NCBI RefSeq assembly: GCF_001536285.1
Contig: NZ_FAOZ01000031.1
Span: 1-38,391 of the forward strand
Length of the DNA: 38,391 bases
Direction of reading: 5' to 3'
Source: Parafrankia irregularis
GTDB taxonomy: Bacteria > Actinomycetota > Actinomycetes > Frankiales > Frankiaceae
Position numbers and translations under genes: made by a program. Position 1 is the first letter of the stretch. The number at the start of each line of letters is the position of its first letter. The notes below the pieces were generated by a model that was not told the DNA's origin, searched no databases, and worked only from the letters and a program-made list of their open reading frames with translations. This document shows, piece after piece, positions 14,631 through 25,731 of this stretch.

Positions 14631-15956
14631 ATGACCATTACGGATAGCACTCTGATCGTCGACGTCCCAGAGGAGATTGCAAGGCGGGTAGTGCTTCCTG
14701 AGGGCCACCGGGAGGACGCGCCGCTGTTCGAGGCGTACCGCTGGCTGCGTGAGAACGCTCCGCTGGCGAAGGTCGCCGTCGACGGATACGACCCGATCTG
14801 GCTTGTCACCAAGCACGCGGACATCATGGAGATCGAGCGGCAGCCGGCGATCTTCACCAGTGGCGGCGGAGAGGCCCCCGGGTCGCACAACCCGATCCTG
14901 CAGAACCAGGCCGGCGACACGTTCACGAAGTCGTTGACAGGCGGCAGCCTGCGGATTCTCGAGACACTCACCTACCTTGACCCGCCCGAGCACACGATGG
15001 TCAAGGACATCGCCAACGAGTGGTTCCGCCCGGTCTCACTGAAGAAGTGGGGGGATCGGATCCGGGCGCTGGCCCAGCAGGCGATCGCCGACCACCTGCG
15101 TCCGGGCGCGAACGACCTGGACCTGGTCGCCGACTTCACGCTCGGCTACCCGTTGCACGTCATCATGACACTCTTCGGCATGCCGGCCGAAGACGAGCCG
15201 CGCATGATGGCGCTGACCCAGGACTTCTTCGGCACCGCCGATCCCGACACCCAGCGGTCCGACACCGAGGCCCTCACCCCCGAGGCGGCGGCCCAGCAGT
15301 GGTCGGCCACCATCCGCGACTTCTACGCCTACTTCGACACCTTTCTCGAGGCCCGGCGTGCCGAGCCCAAGGACGACCTGGCCTCGATCATCGCGAACGC
15401 TCGCCAGCCCGACGGTGAGCTGTTCCCGAAGGAGGTCGCGTACGGCTGGTTCGTCGCGATCGCGACGGCCGGCCACGACACGACGTCGAGCACCCTGTCG
15501 AGCATTCTTGAGGCGCTGGCGCTCAACCCCGATCAGCTCGCCGCGGTGAAGGCGGACCTGTCGCTGGTGCCCGACCTGGTGAACGAAGGGCTGCGCTGGG
15601 CGTCGCCGGTGAAGCACTTCGTCCGGCAGGCCAGCCAGGACTACGTGCTGCGGGGCCAGCAGATCGCCGCGGGTGATCGTTTCATGCTCCTCTACCAGTC
15701 GGCCAACCGTGACACCGACATCTTCGACGCGCCGGACGAGTTCCGTTTCGACCGCCGGCCCAACCGGCACATCGCCTTCGGCTACGGCCCGCACATGTGC
15801 ATCGGTCAGCATCTGGCCAAGCTGGAGCTCCGGGTGATGCTCGAGGAGCTGCTGCCGCGGATCACGGCGATCGACATCACCGGCGGGCGCAAGGTCGTGC
15901 AGACGAACTTCGTGGGCGGACTGCGCCGGCTGCCGGTGCGTTTGGATCTGGCGTGA
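14631..15956 (+). CDS. Cytochrome P450, CYP108/P450terp-like
   Basis: A 441-residue soluble class I P450. The heme ligand is Cys390 in [15 protein letters not shown]. The I-helix oxygen-activation motif is [10 protein letters not shown] and the K-helix ExxR is EGLR. The sequence resembles Pseudomonas P450terp (CYP108A1) along its length in segments I remember: [10 protein letters not shown]...[45 protein letters not shown] near the end. P450terp hydroxylates the allylic methyl of alpha-terpineol. A terpenoid or similar alicyclic substrate is thus likely, though identity cannot be calculated here. GGAG lies 6 nt before the ATG, and the stop overlaps the reductase GTG. Confidence 0.95.
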
Positions 15957-17191
15957 CCGACGGTGTGACCGGTCGGGTGGTCGTGGTCGGCGCGGGCCAC
16001 GCGGGGGGAACCTTCGCGGCCCTGCTCTGCCAGGCGGGGTTCGCCGGCGAGCTGGTCGTCTTCGGTGACGAGCCGGAACCGCCCTACCACCGCCCGCCGC
16101 TGTCCAAGGAGTTCCTGCACGGCCCGCTGGAGAAGTGGCTGCGCGAGCCGGCCTTCTACCCGGAGCAGGGCGTCGCGCTGAGACTCGGCGAGACGGTCGT
16201 GGGGATCGACCGGGCGGCCGGAACGGTCACCTCGACGACTGGACGGGTGTGGTCCTACGACCACCTCGTGCTGGCTACCGGCGCGGCCTCCCGCGCTCTC
16301 CCCGTGCCCGGGGCGGATCTCGACGGCGTCGGGATGCTGCGCACACTCGCCGATGCGCGGGCGCTGCGCAGCCGGGTGCTCGGCGCAGGCTCGGTCGCGG
16401 TGGTCGGCGGCGGCTACATCGGGCTGGAGGTCGCCGCCGTGGTGCGGGCGAACGGCACGCCCGCCACCATTGTGGAGCGGGAGGAACGCCTGCTGGCGAG
16501 AGTGGCCAGCCCCGAGCTGTCGAGTGTCCTCTCGCGCTATCACGCCGAGCGTGGCACGGCCGTGATGACAGGCAGCGTGGTTCGCGGGTTCGAAGGCGAG
16601 GCCGGTCGGCTGCGCGCCGTCGTCGTCGCCGGGCCTGGCGGAGACGAGCGTCGTCTCCGGTGCGACGCCGCGGTCGTCGGGGTCGGTGCGGTTCCCCGCG
16701 ACGAGCTTGCCCGGTCCGTGGGGCTGAGCTGTGACAACGGAATCGTCGTCGACGGCTGGGCGCGCACTGACGACGCCAGGATTCTCGCGATCGGGGACGT
16801 GACGAGCCGGCCGGTTCGTGGTGTTGCCGGACGTATGCGCCTCGAAAGCATTCCCAGCGCGGTCGAGCAGGCCAAACAGGCCGTCGCGTCCGTGCTCGGC
16901 GGCCCCGCTGTCGAATCGGAAGTCCCCTGGTTCTGGTCTGATCAGTTCGACCTCAAACTCAAGATCGCCGGCGTGCTGCACGGGGGATTCGAGACCGTGG
17001 TGCGCGGTGACCCAGGTGCGGGGCGGTTCTCCCTCTTCCACCACCGGGACACCGAGCTCGTCGCGGTGGAGACCGCGAACGCGCCCGCCGACTTCATGGC
17101 AGGCCGGAGGCTGCTCGCCGCGGGCCGACCCGTCGACCCCGGCCGGCTCGCGGACCCGCAGGTCGGCCTGCGTGACCTCGTGACCGCCTGA
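15953..17191 (+). CDS. Ferredoxin reductase (putidaredoxin/terpredoxin reductase type)
   Basis: A 412-residue NAD(P)H-dependent FAD protein that passes electrons to the downstream ferredoxin. The FAD-binding loop [11 protein letters not shown] is at the N-terminus, [11 protein letters not shown] follows, the NADH loop [12 protein letters not shown] is mid-protein and [13 protein letters not shown] is the second FAD contact. The GTG overlaps the P450 stop (GTGA, 15953-15956), so synthesis is probably coupled to the P450. The length matches oxygenase-coupled reductases (about 410 residues). Confidence 0.94.
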
Positions 17192-17700: not shown

Positions 17701-17810
17701 GCCGGTCCGTTCGCCGTCCCTGTGGTGTCCGACGCGCGGGCTGAACACGAAGACGAAAACGGGCTTCCGGGATGGTCGCGGGGCCGCGAAGAGATGAGAA
17801 GAGGAAAACC

Positions 17811-18914
17811 ATGAAAGTAACCGCCGCCGTACTCGACGAGCTCGGTGCGGAGTTCAGCCTGAGGCCGCTCGAGCTGGCCGACCCCGCCCCGGGAGAGGTC
17901 TTGGTGGAGATCGTGGGCGTCGGGCTGTGCCACACCGACCTCGCCGTCCAGCACGGCCACCTTCCGTTCCCGTTCCCGGCGGTCGTCGGTCACGAGGGCA
18001 GCGGTGTGGTGCGGGCGGTCGGCGCGGGCGTGACCAAGGTCGTGCCCGGCGACTCGGTCGCGCTGACCTTCAACAGCTGTGGTGCGTGCTCCGAGTGCCT
18101 GGCCGGTTCACCGGCGTACTGCGCGCGCTTCATGGAGGTGAACTTCGGCGGTGTAGGTGGCGACGGCACGGCCAGGCTGCACGACGGCACGACCGACGTG
18201 GGCAGCAACTTCTTCGGCCAGTCGTCGTTCGCCACCCATGCCCTGGCACATGAGGCCAACGTGGTGAAGGTCCCTGGAGGCGTGCCGCTGGAGCTTGTCG
18301 GGCCGCTGGGCTGCGGCGTGCAGACCGGTGCCGGTGCGGTGCTGAACGCGCTGGACTGCCCCGAGGGCTCCTCGCTCCTGGTCACCGGCGGTGGCTCCGT
18401 CGGACTGTCCGCGGTCATGGCGGGACGGGTCCGCAAGCTGTCGACGATCATCGTCGTCGAGCCCGTCGCGGCTCGTCGCGACCTCGCCCTGACGCTGGGC
18501 GCGACGCACGTCATCGACCCGGCCGCGGGCGACGTCGCCGAGCAGGTCCGTGCGATCATCCCGGAGGGCGTCAAGTTCGCGGTGGACACCACCGCGGTGG
18601 CGCCGGTTCTGGCCGCAGTACTGGCCTCGCTCGCGCAGCAGGGCGAATTCGGAATGGTGGGTGTGCCGTCGGACCCCACCGCGGCGCTGTCGGTCGGCCT
18701 CCTGGAGATGCAGGCCCGGGGACTGCGCTTCCGCGGCATCGTCGAGGGCGACAGTAACCCGGACGTGTTCATCCCGTACCTTGTCGAATTGTTCAAGAAC
18801 GGCGAGTTCCCGCTCGATCGCCTCATCACCACGATGTCGTTCTCGCAAATCAACGAGGCGGTGGCCGTTCAGGCCCGCGGCGACGCCGTCAAGATTGTCC
18901 TGACTCACGGGTAG
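17811..18914 (+). CDS. NAD-dependent zinc alcohol dehydrogenase, benzyl/aryl alcohol type
   Basis: A 367-residue class III-like MDR alcohol dehydrogenase. Catalytic zinc ligands are in GLCHTDLAV and GHEGSG. The structural zinc knot is CGACSECLAGSPAYC (C-x2-C-x2-C-x7-C). LVTGGGSVGLSAVMAGR binds NAD, and VEPVAARRDLA begins the acidic strand. The ATG at 17811 has GAGG 6 nt before it. Placed after P450, reductase and ferredoxin and before aldehyde dehydrogenase, it should oxidise the hydroxymethyl product of the P450 to the aldehyde, the same logic as in the P450terp operon. Confidence 0.93.
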   Translation: MKVTAAVLDELGAEFSLRPLELADPAPGEVLVEIVGVGLCHTDLAVQHGHLPFPFPAVVGHEGSGVVRAVGAGVTKVVPGDSVALTFNSCGACSECLAGSPAYCARFMEVNFGGVGGDGTARLHDGTTDVGSNFFGQSSFATHALAHEANVVKVPGGVPLELVGPLGCGVQTGAGAVLNALDCPEGSSLLVTGGGSVGLSAVMAGRVRKLSTIIVVEPVAARRDLALTLGATHVIDPAAGDVAEQVRAIIPEGVKFAVDTTAVAPVLAAVLASLAQQGEFGMVGVPSDPTAALSVGLLEMQARGLRFRGIVEGDSNPDVFIPYLVELFKNGEFPLDRLITTMSFSQINEAVAVQARGDAVKIVLTHG

Positions 18915-18986
18915 CTGTTCCGACGGGGGTTGGCCTGTCGGGCGCGGCACGGAATTCCGGTGAATTCACCGAGCGAAGGAATGGAC

Positions 18987-20447
18987 ATGAGCACAATCGA
19001 CTACGACCGCCTCTACATCGGCGGCCAGTGGGCGAGCCCGACGTCGACGGAACGAATCAAGGTCACCGAGGCGGCGACCGAGCAGCCCGCGGGCAGCGTG
19101 CCCGCGGCGGGCGAGCGCGATATCGACGCCGCCGTCGACGCGGCCCGCCGCGCCTTCGACGACCCCGCCGGATGGGCAAGCTGGGAGCCGTCCCGTCGGG
19201 GCGAGGTTCTGGAACGCTTCGCCGCGGCACTGGAATCAAGGGGCGCCGAGACGGCCCGGCGGGTGGCGGTGCAGAACGGCATGCCGCTGTGGCTGGCGCA
19301 GAACTTCGAAGCGGGCTTCCCCGCGCTGCTGCTGCGCTACTACACCGGCCTGGTGGCGGCCGGGCAGCACGAGGTCCGGGCCGGCATGCTGGGCAAGAAG
19401 GCACTGATCCGGCGGGAGCCGATCGGCGTCGTCGCCGCGATCGTGCCGTGGAACGTGCCACAGGCCATCACCTTCCTCAAGCTCGCCCCGGCGCTCGCGG
19501 CCGGGAACACCGTGGTCCTCAAGCCGGCTCCCGAAACCGTGCTGGACGCCTTCCTCATGGCCGAGGCTGCGATTGAGGCGGGACTGCCTCCGGGTGTGCT
19601 CAACGTCGTGCCGGCGGGCCGCGAGGTGGGTGCCTACCTCGTTGCGCACCCCGGTGTCGACAAGGTGTCGTTCACCGGCTCCACCGCGGCTGGCCGGGCC
19701 ATCGCCGAGACCTGCGGCCGGCTGCTGCGGCCGGTGACCCTCGAACTCGGCGGCAAGTCCGCTGCGGTCGTGCTCGACGACGCGGACCTGGGTTCTACGC
19801 TGGAGTCGTTCTTCGCCGCGACCCTGCTCAACAACGGCCAGATCTGCTGGCTCGGCACCCGGGTGCTGGCGCCCCGCGCCCGCTACGACGAGATCGTCGA
19901 CACCGTTACGGCACTGGCCGGCTCGCTGACGATCGGCAACCCGCTTGAGCCGGACACGAAGGTCGGCCCGCTGGTCTCTGCACGGCAGCGGGAGCGGGTG
20001 GAGTCCTACATCGCCAAGGGCAAGGCCGAGGGCGGACGGATCACGACCGGCGGCGGGCGCCCGGCGGGCCTCGACCGTGGCTGGTTCGTCGAGCCGACCA
20101 TTTTCGCGGATGTAGACCCGAAGGCGACGATCTCTCAGGAAGAAATCTTCGGCCCGGTACTCGCGGTGATCCCGTATGACGACGACGACGCCGCCGTCGC
20201 CATCGCGAACGACACCGACTTCGGCCTCGGCGGGTCTGTGTGGACGAGTGATCCCGAGCGCGGCGCCGAGTTCGCGGCGAGGGTGCGCTCCGGCACGATC
20301 GGCGTCAACGGCTACGTCAACGATCCGTTCGTGCCGTTCGGCGGCATCAAGGCCAGCGGCATGGGACGTGAGCTGGGGCCGGAGGGCCTGCAGCCGTTCC
20401 AGGTGCTCAAGACGATCTATCTCGACGAAGCCAACGACCCTGTCTGA
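18987..20447 (+). CDS. Aldehyde dehydrogenase
   Basis: A 486-residue NAD(P)-dependent aldehyde dehydrogenase. Motifs are VPWNVPQAITFLKLAPALAAGNTVVLKP, split by the cofactor fold; FTGSTAAGRAI; catalytic Glu in VTLELGGKSA; and the nucleophilic Cys in NNGQICWLGTR. EIFGPVLAVI and PFGGIKASGMGREL follow. The ATG at 18987 is preferred to 18981 because GAAGGA ends 6 nt before it. It would convert the terpenoid aldehyde to the acid that the AMP-forming ligase at 7111-9090 could activate. Confidence 0.94.
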   Translation: MSTIDYDRLYIGGQWASPTSTERIKVTEAATEQPAGSVPAAGERDIDAAVDAARRAFDDPAGWASWEPSRRGEVLERFAAALESRGAETARRVAVQNGMPLWLAQNFEAGFPALLLRYYTGLVAAGQHEVRAGMLGKKALIRREPIGVVAAIVPWNVPQAITFLKLAPALAAGNTVVLKPAPETVLDAFLMAEAAIEAGLPPGVLNVVPAGREVGAYLVAHPGVDKVSFTGSTAAGRAIAETCGRLLRPVTLELGGKSAAVVLDDADLGSTLESFFAATLLNNGQICWLGTRVLAPRARYDEIVDTVTALAGSLTIGNPLEPDTKVGPLVSARQRERVESYIAKGKAEGGRITTGGGRPAGLDRGWFVEPTIFADVDPKATISQEEIFGPVLAVIPYDDDDAAVAIANDTDFGLGGSVWTSDPERGAEFAARVRSGTIGVNGYVNDPFVPFGGIKASGMGRELGPEGLQPFQVLKTIYLDEANDPV

Positions 20448-20707: not shown

Positions 20708-21496
20708 ATGACCACGACCCGGAACTCGAAAGAGCTGACGATCCCGCCGGATGGCCCGGCGCCGTCCACGCAGCGGTCCGTCGGATTACGGACGCTGCTC
20801 GTCTGCGTGTGGTCCGTGCCGCCCGGCCTCGTGCTCGTCATCGTCGGATGGCTGATGGCCGGCTTCATGCCGCCGCCACCGGCCCACGACACCGCAGCGG
20901 AGATCGCCTCCTTCTACCGAGATGACACCACCGTCATCCGGCTGGGCCTGCTCCTCATGCTGACCGGCTTCGCGGTGTGGGCGCCGTTGTTCGGGGTCAT
21001 AACACGTCAGATGCTGCACGCCCGCCGCTCGCACCCGGTGCTGGCCTACATTCAGCTTGGCTCCGGTGCGGCCACCTGGATATTTCTGCTGGTGCCGTTT
21101 CTCGTGCTGAGCGCCGCGGCGTTTCGTCCCGAACGCAGCCCGGAGATCACTCAGGCGCTGCACGACACGGGCTGGATCATGCTGTTCATGCCGTTCACCC
21201 CGTTCGTCGTGCAGAGCGTCGCCATCGCCGTGGCTACGCTGCTCGATGCCCCCCAGAGGCCTTTCTTCCCGCGCTGGGTGGCGTACTTCAACATCATGGA
21301 GGCCATCTCCTTTCTCCCGGTCGGGCTGCTCACGTTCTTCAAGACCGGGCCGTTCGCCTATCACGGTGTGCTGGTCTTCTGGATCCCTATCCTCGTCTTC
21401 TTCGCCTGGATGCTCGTGATGACCCTGGTCTGCCACCGCTCGGTGCTCGACACCGCGTTGACCACGGTGCCCCGCGAGCCGGCACATGCGGGATGA
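20708..21496 (+). CDS. Six-helix integral membrane protein of unknown function
   Basis: A 262-residue protein with about six hydrophobic segments (near residues 30-52, 76-98, 108-135, 152-176, 188-210 and 222-245). A polar N-terminal tail and a short C-terminal tail flank them. No enzyme motif is recognised; charged PPPPAHDTAAEIASFYRDD lies in the first loop. AGAGGA precedes the ATG by about 5 nt. Its stop overlaps the reading frame of the COX III-like gene, so the two may form one transcript. Position after a P450 catabolic operon suggests transport or a respiratory accessory role, but nothing in the sequence decides. Confidence 0.8.
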   Translation: MTTTRNSKELTIPPDGPAPSTQRSVGLRTLLVCVWSVPPGLVLVIVGWLMAGFMPPPPAHDTAAEIASFYRDDTTVIRLGLLLMLTGFAVWAPLFGVITRQMLHARRSHPVLAYIQLGSGAATWIFLLVPFLVLSAAAFRPERSPEITQALHDTGWIMLFMPFTPFVVQSVAIAVATLLDAPQRPFFPRWVAYFNIMEAISFLPVGLLTFFKTGPFAYHGVLVFWIPILVFFAWMLVMTLVCHRSVLDTALTTVPREPAHAG

Positions 21497-22148
21497 GGCT
21501 GGAGCTCTGGGGGGATCGGTTCGGCCTGGCGGGCCTGTCACCGGTGGTGGGCCCGCTGACGCCGCCACGACCGCGGCCGGGCCCGGCCGCGGTCGTGGCG
21601 GCGGGCATGTGCCGGGCGAGCCGGGTATCTGGGTGCTCGTGCTCGGGGACATGGTCATCTTCGGAGTCCTGTTCACACTCTTCAGCCGGGCGCGCGCCCA
21701 CGACCCCGTGCTCTTCGCCGAGTCGCAGGAGCGGCTGAGTACCACGATCGGCCTGCTCAACACCGTGTTGCTGCTGGCGAGTTCGTACTTCGTCGTCCGC
21801 GGTGTGGGAGCTGTCCGTGACGGCGGCCCACGCCAGCCGGCACGCTTCTTCATGGCGGCGCTGGCCTGCGGCCTGGGTTTCACCGTGAACAAGGTGCTGG
21901 AGTACAGCGGGAAGCTCGGGCACGGGATCACCCTCACCACCAACGACTTCTACATGTACTACTACGTGCTCACCGGAATCCACGCACTGCATCTCGTTCT
22001 CGGGATGTGCGTGCTCGTAGCCCTGATCTGGTACACCCGGCAACCATCGCGCAGTCCGAAAATCGCAATCGTCGAAGGATGTGCATCCTACTGGCACCTG
22101 GTGGACGTGCTTTGGATAGTCCTCTTCCCGCTGCTCTATCTCATCTGA
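21486..22148 (+). CDS. Cytochrome c oxidase subunit III / NorE-like membrane protein
   Basis: Up to 220 residues, with five predicted helices after residue ~45: PGEPGIWVLVLGDMVIFG, TTIGLLNTVLLLASSYFVV, FFMAALACGLGFTVNK, then MYYYVLTGIHALHLVLGMCV and YWHLVDVLWIVLFPLLYL. The conserved GIHALHLVLG and YWHLVDVLW blocks are COX III hallmarks. The start is uncertain. The ATG at 21486 overlaps the previous gene by 11 bp but has no clear ribosome-binding site, and its first ~40 residues include the translation of a 44-bp palindrome. The GTG at 21609, just before PGEPGIWV, would give a 179-residue protein starting where the family's conserved part starts. No subunit I or II gene is nearby. Confidence 0.85.
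   Translation: MRDEAGALGGSVRPGGPVTGGGPADAATTAAGPGRGRGGGHVPGEPGIWVLVLGDMVIFGVLFTLFSRARAHDPVLFAESQERLSTTIGLLNTVLLLASSYFVVRGVGAVRDGGPRQPARFFMAALACGLGFTVNKVLEYSGKLGHGITLTTNDFYMYYYVLTGIHALHLVLGMCVLVALIWYTRQPSRSPKIAIVEGCASYWHLVDVLWIVLFPLLYLI
21560..21603. repeat. 44-bp perfect palindrome
   Basis: The left half (21560-21581) is the exact reverse complement of the right half (21582-21603), with no spacer, centred on GGGCCC. It lies between the stop of the membrane-protein gene and the second possible start of the COX III-like gene (GTG 21609). It could be an RNA hairpin acting as attenuator or processing site, or a coding-neutral inserted palindrome. Confidence 0.9.
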
Positions 22149-22186
22149 CATCTTCCGAAGTACCGAGAACTGGAGGCCGGGCTGCC

Positions 22187-22492
22187 GTGTCCACACCGCT
22201 GCCACCCCCGGGCCCGATAAGCACAGCGAGAGAAGGCGGGGACCGGGTGATCTCGCTCGTGGCGGTCGTCCTCGTTCTCGTGACCGGTCTGTCGGTGTGG
22301 CTGGCGGAGGATCTGGCGGGCGACGGTGTTCCCGGGTCGGCGCTCGTCATGACGATCGTCGCGTTCAAGCTGAGGCTCGTGGGCCTCTACTTCATGGAAC
22401 TCAGGCACGCTCCGCTGACGCTGAAGCTGTTGTTCCATGCCTGGGTCGTCGGGGTGTGGGGAATCATCGTCGGCTTCCAGATGGCGGGTTGA
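22187..22492 (+). CDS. Prokaryotic cytochrome c oxidase subunit IV / NorF-like small membrane protein
   Basis: A 101-residue protein with three hydrophobic segments (about 20-40, 50-68 and 78-97). The central FKLRLVGLYFMELRHAPL is characteristic of the prokaryotic COX IV family. GTG start, with GGAGG about 10 nt upstream. It follows the COX III-like gene by 38 bp. NorE/NorF-type pairs are known from nitric-oxide-reductase operons and COX III/IV pairs from terminal oxidases; here the pair stands without the catalytic subunit. Confidence 0.8.
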   Translation: MSTPLPPPGPISTAREGGDRVISLVAVVLVLVTGLSVWLAEDLAGDGVPGSALVMTIVAFKLRLVGLYFMELRHAPLTLKLLFHAWVVGVWGIIVGFQMAG

Positions 22493-24345: not shown

Positions 24346-24392
24346 CCAGGCGGTGACGGCGCTCGTTCTGCGCTCGCACCGTCACCGCCTGG
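24346..24392. terminator. Bidirectional terminator between convergent genes
   Basis: CCAGGCGGTGACGG (24346-24359) and CCGTCACCGCCTGG (24379-24392) form a perfect 14-bp stem with a 19-nt loop. It starts immediately after the ccr stop, and its right arm contains the stop codon and last codons of the minus-strand gene ending at 24382. It should terminate both transcripts. Confidence 0.75.
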
Positions 24393-25731
24393 TGTAGAGG
24401 ACGCCGAGCTTGTCGCTCTCCTCGCCCGCACGGCCGTGGAATCCAGCGATCTGCCAGCCAGACGGCGCTGTGCGGGTCACGCAGTCGGAGGTGATGGTGC
24501 CACCGGCGAGCGTACGGCCGAGGCTGGTAGTGAACTTAGCGTAGAAGATTCTTGTGTGATCGCTCACCTGACCCTGACAGAGGTTCACCGAAGTCATGTA
24601 CTCCCCGCTCCCCAGGGCCAGCGACTGGGCGCTCCCTCCGGTGCCACCGTGCGCCAGGGAGGTACCGTTGGCCAGGGTGAGGCCGACCCGGTCGACCCGG
24701 GAACCCGAACGCAGACTGACGGCCGTGGCCGCACCGCCGGCGGGAATCGTGTCGATATCGGTGAAGGAATACCCGTGAGGGCCTCCGAACTGGTCGCTCG
24801 CCTGGTAGTCGGAATTGCGGGTCCAGGTGAAGTCCACGGCGATCGGAAAGTGGTCGGAGAGCATGAGGCCTTGCGCGTCTAGGAAATCGGCGTTCCGATT
24901 GGAATAGTTGGCGGCGTTGAGCGTGACGAGACGGCTGCTCCGATACAGCACCTTGTCGACCACCTCGCAGGTGTCGGTTGGCGCTGCCTCGTCACAGAGC
25001 AGTGCAGGGCTACCGGCGGTGGGGGCCAGCCCACCACGCTCCAGCTCCACCCAGGCGTCGGTGAGCCCGTTCGCGGCCGCGAACGCGGCGATAGTGTCGC
25101 CGGTGCGGGTGTATCGGGTGTTCGTGTCGCCCATCACCACCACGGCATTGCCCACCGAATGCATGGAGATGTAGGAGCCAAGCTGGCTCAGATTTGACGC
25201 CCTGGCGGCGAGATCGGCGCTGGTGGTCCCGGCGTCGGGATGCAGGTTGTAGAGGTCGACATAGGCTCCCTCGCCCAGCCGGATCCGACTGAACGTAAAG
25301 CCTTTCGGGGTCAGGCAGTCGGCACCCTCCGACGAGCTGCAGTTATCCCATTTGACCCGGTCGAGATCGCTGAGGCTGAAGTCCGAGAGGGTGTTGAGTC
25401 CGCTACCAATCGGCACCCCGCCGCTCGTGGGTGTCCGGTAGGGATGGGTGTCGGTCGCGTAGAGGTTCGCGTGGTAGTTGAAGTCCTCCTGCACCTGTAC
25501 GATGTCATAAGGACCGAGCCGCTGCCCGATAGCGGTGGTGCCCTCCGCGCGAGGAGTCGACGCGCTAGAAAGCTCCTCGGGTAGACCCGCGATGTTGTAG
25601 GTCAGGACGGAAAACGACCCCCCAGCGGGTGAGTCCGCGTCCGCCGCCGGGGCAGCGGCGACACCGACAGTGAACGAGAGAGCGAAGACAGCCGCGAATG
25701 CGGCACGAGCCGGATGTAGAGACGGGCGCAT
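24382..25731 (-). CDS. Secreted endonuclease/exonuclease/phosphatase-fold protein with jacalin-like domain
   Basis: A 449-residue exported protein with a signal peptide of about 32 residues (Arg-rich start, hydrophobic core, AAAPAADA). Residues ~40-305 are an EEP hydrolase domain: VLTYNIAGLPE, metal Glu82 in VQVQEDFNYH, LYNLHPDAGTTS, GDTNTRYTRTG and the terminal LSDHFPIAVDF. Residues ~312-447 look like a jacalin-type lectin: SVSLRSGSRVDRVGL is approximated by VSLRSGSRVDRVG, then HGGTGG and LGSGEYMTSVNLC. EEP enzymes include nucleases and sphingomyelinase-type phosphodiesterases; the substrate is open. GGAG lies 5 nt before the ATG. Confidence 0.85.
   Translation of the reverse strand: MRPSLHPARAAFAAVFALSFTVGVAAAPAADADSPAGGSFSVLTYNIAGLPEELSSASTPRAEGTTAIGQRLGPYDIVQVQEDFNYHANLYATDTHPYRTPTSGGVPIGSGLNTLSDFSLSDLDRVKWDNCSSSEGADCLTPKGFTFSRIRLGEGAYVDLYNLHPDAGTTSADLAARASNLSQLGSYISMHSVGNAVVVMGDTNTRYTRTGDTIAAFAAANGLTDAWVELERGGLAPTAGSPALLCDEAAPTDTCEVVDKVLYRSSRLVTLNAANYSNRNADFLDAQGLMLSDHFPIAVDFTWTRNSDYQASDQFGGPHGYSFTDIDTIPAGGAATAVSLRSGSRVDRVGLTLANGTSLAHGGTGGSAQSLALGSGEYMTSVNLCQGQVSDHTRIFYAKFTTSLGRTLAGGTITSDCVTRTAPSGWQIAGFHGRAGEESDKLGVLYTRR

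What the first reader, a model, noticed from the sequence alone, without database searches (positions are those of the whole stretch)
20708..22492. Orphan COX III / COX IV (NorE/NorF-like) pair with a six-helix protein in a P450 cluster
Two accessory oxidase subunits occur without subunits I or II, directly after a catabolic oxygenase operon and before ccr, linked to an unrecognised six-TM protein. Accessory subunits in such a place could support a membrane electron-transfer or substrate-uptake complex, or modify a resident oxidase when the substrate is used.
Basis: partly seen in the sequence, partly recalled or inferred. Interest (0 to 1): 0.6.

Follow-up and report, generated by a model that had tools for sequence, protein, structure and literature searches.

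The report
Terpene-pathway membrane trio, NorEF-like
Next to a monoterpene-type P450 operon lies a three-gene membrane unit (an uncharacterised six-helix protein plus relatives of two oxidase accessory subunits) that recurs in many bacteria beside genes for oxidising oily compounds, and whose relatives sit unremarked in the known limonene pathway.

Summary
Window 20708-22492 encodes a six-helix protein without a Pfam match ("TM6"), a COX III-like and a COX IV-like protein. The grouping is not chance: 71 of 114 TM6 loci carry all three genes (five duplicates removed), and of 58 genomes the same 16 have TM6, close COX3 and COX4. The COX3 falls with NorE, not CtaE/CyoC, yet no NOR was recognised in the window genome. 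The neighbouring P450 is closest to P450tol and P450terp, so the operon looks like monoterpene methyl oxidation. Strongest lead: a genome whose linalool dehydratase-isomerase is identical to PDB 5i3t carries three trios plus CtmG, itself a COX3 relative, beside GeoA, GeoB and CtmAB. Published Table 1 marks four proteins that I map to this family as seen only in alpha-phellandrene-grown cells. TM6 reaches 49 matches per genome against 0-8 close COX3, like exchangeable specificity subunits on a shared core. Best guess: a membrane platform handing lipophilic substrates to pathway enzymes (0.4). The ccr link is not conserved, and P450s are not enriched beside the trio overall.

The parts
14631..15956 (+). 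Cytochrome P450, CYP108-like (first gene of the operon)
   Evidence: PF00067; closest solved chains P450tol 7v40 (682 bits) and P450terp 1cpt (439 bits); 82-90% identical copies at trio loci in three other Frankia/Protofrankia genomes
15797..17191 (+). NAD(P)H:ferredoxin reductase (longest ORF; true start probably near or after the P450 stop at 15956)
   Evidence: PF07992 and PF14759; 47% identical to the CtmF-like protein in L219
17380..17700 (+). 2Fe-2S ferredoxin
   Evidence: PF00111; 31% identical to the CtmE-like protein
17772..18914 (+). Zinc alcohol dehydrogenase, GeoA-like
   Evidence: PF08240/PF00107; 46% identical to the protein in GeoA position; two solved relatives at E<=1e-60, one a benzyl alcohol dehydrogenase, 1f8f
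18930..20447 (+). Aldehyde dehydrogenase, GeoB-like
   Evidence: PF00171 E 4e-154; 52% identical to the protein in GeoB position
20708..21496 (+). TM6: six-helix membrane protein without a Pfam match
   Evidence: no Foldseek PDB match at E<=0.001
21486..22148 (+). COX III-like protein of the NorE-like clade
   Evidence: PF00510, Foldseek 7qhm_F, tree
22187..22492 (+). COX IV-like (NorF-like) small membrane protein, GTG start
   Evidence: PF03626

Best explanation
The trio is a mobile membrane module of terpenoid/steroid-type catabolism. The COX3-like and COX4-like proteins form a small constant core; TM6 is the variable, pathway-specific subunit. The complex sits in the inner membrane, takes lipophilic pathway compounds (hydrocarbon, alcohol, aldehyde) out of the bilayer and presents them to soluble enzymes docked on its cytoplasmic face: here a CYP108-like P450, an alcohol dehydrogenase and an aldehyde dehydrogenase. 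Shown: gene linkage, co-occurrence, COX III fold, NorE-like descent, many TM6 per COX3, and published detection only in terpene-grown cells of proteins that I map to the family. Inferred: that the three proteins form one complex, that TM6 sets specificity, and that the job is substrate hand-over rather than electron transfer.
For: Co-occurrence: of 58 genomes (the own one included) TM6 is in 16, COX3 at E<1e-60 in the same 16, COX4 in those 16 plus G023, which has a COX3 remnant. 18 of 20 genomes picked for TM6-only loci hold a close COX3. Order: 61 of 73 COX3-containing gene strings read TM6-COX3-COX4. Distances of neighbouring TM6 and COX3 correlate (67 pairs, r 0.67, 0 of 2000 shuffles as high). 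Neighbours: aldehyde dehydrogenase within 400 nt 13 of 266 genes, beyond 3 kb 3 of 816; phytoene-dehydrogenase-like flavoenzyme 14 of 266 against 4 of 816. Terpene link: in G429 one trio adjoins the GeoA position, one follows the GeoB position, one precedes the thiolase and ctmA, and the gene in CtmG position is a COX3 relative; Table 1 of PMC4109377 marks CDM25268, CDM25279, CDM25294 and CtmG '++', peptides only in alpha-phellandrene cells. GeoA- and GeoB-type enzymes and the P450 chain use NAD(H) (recalled), so they need no membrane electron acceptor. Specificity subunits: TM6 to close COX3 37 to 1 in G058 and 49 to 8 in G063; in G046 two trios have 87% identical COX3 but TM6 only 34% identical. 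A bicyclic-monoterpene activity of C. defragrans lysate is absent from separated soluble and membrane fractions and does not return on mixing (PMC5876002 section), which fits a membrane-attached complex, though which proteins are involved is unknown.
Against: No direct evidence of a physical complex, no ligand, no mutant: the transposon screen of PMC4109377 hit 17 genes, and none is one that I map to a trio or CtmG. Six of the ten mapped proteins were not detected. No fusion of TM6, COX3 and COX4 was found in the loci searched. Many TM6 genes stand without COX3 nearby (41 of 119 loci show TM6 alone), and four Mycobacterium loci pair TM6 with NorQ/NorD-like chaperone genes, which suits metal insertion better than substrate delivery. 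The nearest neighbour agreed between TM6 and COX3 in only 32 of 67 pairs. COX III proteins are otherwise known as oxidase subunits (recalled). The 260-nt gap before TM6 leaves room for separate expression.
Confidence: 0.4

Rival explanations
1. Replacement accessory subunits: the COX3/COX4-like pair joins a resident haem-copper enzyme (aa3 oxidase here, NOR in denitrifiers) and, with TM6, protects or tunes it while oily substrates fill the membrane.
For: COX III fold closest to actinobacterial aa3 subunit III; NorE proteins nest among these COX3 proteins; the window genome has resident COX1 and CtaE-type genes; NorQ/NorD-like genes by TM6 in four Mycobacterium loci.
Against: Up to 49 TM6 matches and 8 close COX3 per genome, and three trios in one catabolic island, two of them by different dehydrogenases, look pathway-specific; no COX1 or NorB relative in the 119 loci.
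Confidence: 0.25
2. Tolerance device: the trio exports or sequesters toxic lipophilic intermediates or stabilises the membrane.
For: The C. defragrans island also holds an RND efflux system, AmeABCD, whose deletion lowers monoterpene tolerance (PMC6394551, passages); trios lie on conjugative and mobilizable plasmids.
Against: No energy-coupling part recognised; enrichment next to specific oxidation enzymes.
Confidence: 0.15
3. Electron-transfer complex that passes electrons from flavin desaturases (CtmAB or delta-24 desaturase type) into the quinone pool.
For: Phytoene-dehydrogenase-like flavoenzymes enriched next to TM6; L104 has two in tandem about 25 nt upstream of TM6; the delta-24 sterol desaturase, a CtmAB relative, needs an electron acceptor (PMC11061730, passages).
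Against: No invariant histidine among 51 TM6 sequences; the commonest is at a column with His in 25 of 51, where the window has Asp. Aldehyde dehydrogenase and P450 partners do not need such an acceptor (recalled).
Confidence: 0.1
4. True NorEF working with a nitric oxide reductase.
For: Same COX3 clade; COX3-COX4 pairs in nor clusters on plasmids.
Against: The window genome gave two PF00115 hits, both strong over the full profile; one was compared and is 42% identical to CyoB with almost no similarity to NorB; no NorB was recognised.
Confidence: 0.03

Closest known systems
NorE/NorF of nor gene clusters
   Same: COX3-COX4 gene pair outside an oxidase operon, same COX3 clade; [quoted passage not shown]
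   Different: Has TM6; no norCB; sits in catabolic loci; several copies per genome
Subunits III/IV of actinobacterial aa3 oxidase (CtaE/CtaF) and CyoC/CyoD
   Same: COX III fold; invariant HxxH and E...WHxVD residues in the family, also typical of oxidase subunit III (recalled)
   Different: Separate side of a branch with SH-aLRT 97; no COX1 at the locus; below the NCBIfam cut-off (94.6 of 190 bits)
ctmABCDEFG/geoAB monoterpene island of Castellaniella defragrans (PMC4109377)
   Same: Trios and CtmG beside GeoA, GeoB and CtmAB; ferredoxin, reductase, ADH and ALDH related to the window's
   Different: Uses a flavin limonene dehydrogenase instead of a P450; the sections read call these proteins hypothetical
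CYP108 systems (P450terp, P450tol, CYP108N12)
   Same: Closest P450 relatives; the terp operon's P450, ferredoxin, reductase and dehydrogenase make-up is recalled
   Different: Whether their loci carry a trio was not examined; the review passages seen mention none (PMC11279926)
DUF4386 (PF14329)
   Same: 3 of 51 TM6 proteins match it, best E 5e-7
   Different: The other 48, the window's among them, do not reach E 0.001; kinship not tested further

Membership tests
NorE/NorF | COX3-like and COX4-like gene pair not in an oxidase operon | tested here: met
NorE/NorF | Groups with NorE rather than CtaE/CyoC | tested here: met
   quick tree of 87 rows (65 of 83 trio-type COX3 at hand, 5 labelled NorE, 16 CtaE/CyoC, CtmG). 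Branch 97 between CtaE/CyoC and the rest. Four of the five 'NorE' lie in nor-type clusters (L154-L157); L158 is an orphan pair that I labelled so
NorE/NorF | Encoded with norCB, or a NOR in the genome | tested here: not met
   two PF00115 hits only, in one draft genome, 99.7% complete; one of them CyoB-like, the other not compared (my extraction took a wrong frame)
aa3 oxidase subunit III (NF050119) | Score over the curated cut-off | tested here: not met
   94.6 bits against 190
COX3 (PF00510) | Score over gathering cut-off, and fold | tested here: met
   47 bits against 23.8; 7qhm_F E 9.6e-8
COX4_pro (PF03626) | Score over gathering cut-off | tested here: met
   44.1 against 28.9
Haem-copper oxidase complex | Subunit I at the locus | tested here: not met
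   COX1 hits only on contigs C35 and C63; none in the window by BLAST
DUF4386 (PF14329) | Window TM6 matches the model | tested here: not met
   no family at E<=0.001 for P0001; 3 of 51 relatives match
Any solved membrane-protein fold for TM6 | Convincing structural match | tested here: inconclusive
   best Foldseek E 0.2; best VIA Z 10.8 at rmsd 5.0, a value that helical bundles reach by chance
CYP108 P450 | Closest to characterised CYP108 members | tested here: met
   P450tol 682 bits, P450terp 439, 3tkt ('Cytochrome P450') 328, then CYP125MRCA 245; that the first ones are CYP108 is recalled
Substrate-delivery complex | Physical association and ligand binding | not testable with these tools
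   needs purification

The most novel reading that the evidence does not exclude
A new class of membrane system: an oxidase-derived COX3/COX4 core with dozens of exchangeable six-helix specificity subunits that channels terpenoid and steroid substrates from the bilayer into P450s, flavin desaturases and dehydrogenases, found from actinomycetes to proteobacteria and Binatota; NorEF of nitric oxide reductase would be an offshoot of it.
Probability: 0.3. Interest if true: 0.88.

Novelty: new variant of a known kind. Interest (0 to 1): 0.68.

Why it matters
How bacteria bring very hydrophobic substrates to soluble enzymes, and what NorE and NorF do, are both open. A module that carries NorEF relatives without a recognised NOR, with members reported only in terpene-grown cells and tied to named enzymes (GeoA, GeoB, CtmAB), makes both questions testable in a strain with deletion and transposon genetics. 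A membrane-protein family with up to 49 matches in one genome, of which 48 of 51 tested members match no Pfam model, is itself a gap in annotation.

Tried and rejected
Split subunit I: TM6 could be half of a 12-helix COX I (two TM6 genes occur in tandem in some loci). Rejected: no invariant histidine in 51 sequences (one column has His in 25 of 51) and no convincing fold match (no haem-copper subunit I among the 50 rows shown in either, which is not proof). P450 as the general partner: not enriched. AveC-like, SDR, enoyl-CoA hydratase and acyl-CoA dehydrogenase neighbours: not enriched near TM6/COX genes. ccr as part of the unit: no close copy in L076 or L078, the Frankia loci with enough downstream sequence. 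Promoters and terminators: none found by the consensus scan, uninformative for this organism. Fusions: none in the loci held then. Paper searches on the trio gave nothing that describes it; the library holds open-access papers only, so 'uncharacterised' means not found there.

Limits of the statistics. Loci were collected by TM6 similarity, so TM6 presence is by construction. The loci are partly related (seven gammaproteobacterial ALDH-TM6 loci resemble each other) and the Fisher tests treat genes as independent. The ALDH and flavoenzyme profiles were built from proteins of these same loci. Five duplicate loci (L038-L041, L134) were dropped before counts of 114. Gene calls were my own, by codon composition. 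The bin 'close COX3' (E<1e-57) can include true NorE: five NorE-labelled proteins score 2e-49 to 8e-66 with the same profile, so in denitrifiers some counts may be NorE. 'TM6 matches' can include fragments and broken copies. The order-wide search found TM6 in 2 of 399 genomes, one of them the centre itself, scored at most 6 candidates per genome and may miss copies. The pairing to Table 1 rests on gene order and lengths (ctmA 1698, ctmB 1650, ctmE 324, ctmF 1230 nt agree), not on the sequences of the CDM records. The text of PMC4109377 says cluster proteins other than CtmA, B, E and F were not detected, while its Table 1 lists CtmG as LC ++; I follow the table. I did not see the oxygen condition of the proteome cultures stated. 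In one search the COX1 query from L195 was a wrong frame and gave no information. Papers seen: PMC4109377 passages and sections 5, 6, 8, 10; PMC5876002 passages and section 6; passages only of PMC11061730, PMC6394551, PMC11279926, PMC13036017; a term search without hits in PMC12583861.

Full report
What is there. The window (contig C31 of a 9.5-Mb genome) is Frankia-like: its closest named match is Frankia canadensis, 79% identical in TM6. The trio is as described: TM6 20708-21496, COX3-like 21486-22148, COX4-like 22187-22492. Genes 1 and 2 overlap by 11 nt, genes 2 and 3 are 38 nt apart, 260 nt separate the aldehyde dehydrogenase from TM6 and 502 nt separate the trio from ccr. The window's TM6 has no Pfam family at E<=0.001; of 51 family members three match DUF4386, best E 5e-7. 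Its model (pLDDT 91) has no solved relative at Foldseek E<=0.001. The COX3 model matches oxidase subunit III, best 7qhm_F.

The operon before it. P450, ferredoxin reductase, ferredoxin, alcohol dehydrogenase and aldehyde dehydrogenase. The P450 is closest to P450tol and P450terp. A review passage says CYP108N12 and N14 hydroxylate p-cymene and limonene to 4-isopropylbenzyl alcohol and perillyl alcohol (PMC11279926); that P450tol and P450terp are CYP108 members is recalled. So the likely route is monoterpene methyl to alcohol, aldehyde and acid; the exact substrate is unknown.

The trio is a conserved unit. Loci were gathered by TM6 similarity and read by profile search: 76 of 119, or 71 of 114 after removing five duplicates, contain TM6, COX3 and COX4; 41 of the 119 show TM6 alone. 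Of 73 strings holding COX3, 61 read TM6-COX3-COX4. No COX1 or NorB relative lies in any of the 119 loci. Of 58 genomes, the own one included, TM6 occurs in 16, COX3 at E<1e-60 in the same 16, COX4 in those 16 and G023; G023 has a COX3 remnant. The other COX3 hits there have E of 1.6e-33 or weaker, presumably CtaE. Of 20 genomes holding TM6-only loci, 18 also have a close COX3; the exceptions are G074, with weaker or broken hits only, and G077, a 1.5-Mb assembly. A second form has two TM6 genes, e.g. C15 of the window's own genome (L036). Trios lie on plasmids of Pseudonocardia, Rhodococcus, Mycobacterium, Sphingobium, Diaphorobacter, Novosphingobium and Streptomyces (with 44), with neighbours such as Mce/MlaD uptake genes, ring-hydroxylating oxygenases, acyl-CoA dehydrogenases and a P450; in Azoarcus and Sphingobium herbicidovorans TM6 and the COX pair are a little apart.

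Neighbours. In batch Pfam scans of 122 proteins from the same strings, aldehyde dehydrogenase was the commonest family (11 of 122); among 122 of 426 proteins sampled from more than 4 kb away it is not among the 25 listed families, whose least count is 2. By own profiles, within 400 nt against beyond 3 kb: ALDH 13 of 266 against 3 of 816; phytoene-dehydrogenase-like flavoenzyme 14 of 266 against 4 of 816; P450 4 of 266 against 11 of 816, so no enrichment. The P450 link is therefore mainly a Frankia feature: 82-90% identical P450 in L076, L077 and L078, and a fragmentary match in L079. In Protofrankia (L078) the P450 ends 248 nt before the TM6 frame, without the reductase, ferredoxin, ADH or ALDH between. 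ccr has no close copy in L076 or L078.

The limonene island. An order-wide search (2 of 399 genomes positive, one the centre itself) gave G429. Its contig C22 matches the monoterpene island in Table 1 of PMC4109377 in order and gene length: ctmA 1698, ctmB 1650, ctmE 324, ctmF 1230 nt. Its LDI is identical over 397 residues to PDB 5i3t. There, the gene in GeoA position adjoins a trio (CDM25268-25270 by position), the one in GeoB position is followed by another across a MarR-position gene (CDM25279-25277), and a third lies before the thiolase and ctmA (CDM25295-25293); the gene in CtmG position encodes a diverged COX3. Table 1 marks CDM25268 and CDM25279 (TM6), CDM25294 (COX3) and CtmG as '++', peptides only in alpha-phellandrene-grown cells; the other six mapped members were not detected. 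Window proteins are related: ADH to GeoA 46%, ALDH to GeoB 52%, reductase to CtmF 47%, ferredoxin to CtmE 31%, TM6 30-31%, trio COX3 42-46%, CtmG 36%, COX4 34-41%. None of the 17 genes hit in that paper's transposon screen is one of these. A separate paper reports that a bicyclic-monoterpene activity of this strain is absent from separated membrane and soluble fractions and not restored on mixing (PMC5876002 section).

Specificity-subunit model. TM6 matches against close COX3: G058 37/1, G059 8/5, G060 9/2, G061 25/2, G062 2/1, G063 49/8, G064 2/1, G065 2/1, G066 21/1, G067 12/2, G068 6/2, G069 3/2, G070 26/5, G071 28/8, G072 17/4, G073 32/6, G074 2/0, G075 3/2, G076 2/1, G077 1/0, and G046 11/4. 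TM6 and COX3 distances correlate over 67 pairs (r 0.67) but the nearest neighbours agree in only 32; in G046 two trios have 87% identical COX3 while TM6 is 34% identical. This suits a constant core with swapped partners; it is an inference.

Descent. In a quick tree of 87 COX3 domains (65 of 83 trio-type ones used), trio, NorE and CtmG lie together apart from CtaE/CyoC (97), with the five NorE-labelled rows inside; forks inside are poorly supported. Four of the five lie in nor-type clusters; L158 does not. CtmG and CyoC are long branches. The window genome gave two PF00115 hits; one is 42% identical to CyoB and not NorB-like, the other was not compared; no NOR was recognised. A 2026 paper calls norE and norF genes for proteins of unknown function (PMC13036017, passage). 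Four Mycobacterium loci have NorQ/NorD-like genes (AAA_5 with CbbQ_C; VWA), the NorQ-like one 14, 335, 749 and 3614 nt from TM6, and no COX1 or NorB relative in the loci; my favoured model does not explain them.

Judgement. The unit, its COX III and NorE kinship and its tie to lipophilic-compound oxidation are well supported. The mechanism is not shown. Pathway partners that use NAD(H), a member island that works without oxygen, many TM6 per core and detection only with a terpene favour substrate handling (0.4) over modifying an oxidase (0.25), tolerance (0.15), electron transfer (0.1) and NOR service (0.03).

Noticed in passing
L036 9977-12338 (G000:C15): The window's genome carries a second system with two different TM6 genes before COX3 and COX4; the same form recurs in eleven other genomes of the relatives set.
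   Followed up: partly
L131, L132, L135, L136: Mycobacterium TM6 loci contain NorQ-like AAA+ and NorD-like VWA genes and an AveC-like membrane protein, without a COX1/NorB relative in the loci.
   Followed up: partly
L104 6779-10699: Two tandem phytoene-dehydrogenase-like flavoenzymes end about 25 nt before TM6, resembling a CtmAB or delta-24 desaturase pair.
   Followed up: partly
L037 8375-9538 (G000:C31): A diverged TM6 gene without COX3/COX4 in the 18 kb read lies about 60 kb from the window's trio on the same contig.
   Followed up: no
L048 and L043 (G046): Two trio loci in one genome with 87% identical COX3 but TM6 only 34% identical: an apparent TM6 swap.
   Followed up: yes
G063 (genome of L110, Mycolicibacterium rhodesiae JS60): 49 TM6 matches in one genome, a very large expansion of an unnamed family.
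   Followed up: partly
L155 3926-7721: Thiothrix plasmid with a NorEF-like pair, a hemerythrin and NorQ/NorD-type genes but no norB annotated in the stretch shown.
   Followed up: no
alignment A1: Three of 51 TM6 proteins match DUF4386, so the two families may be distant kin.
   Followed up: no
window 24382-25731 (-): Secreted-looking protein reminiscent of an endonuclease/exonuclease/phosphatase-type hydrolase; by eye only.
   Followed up: no
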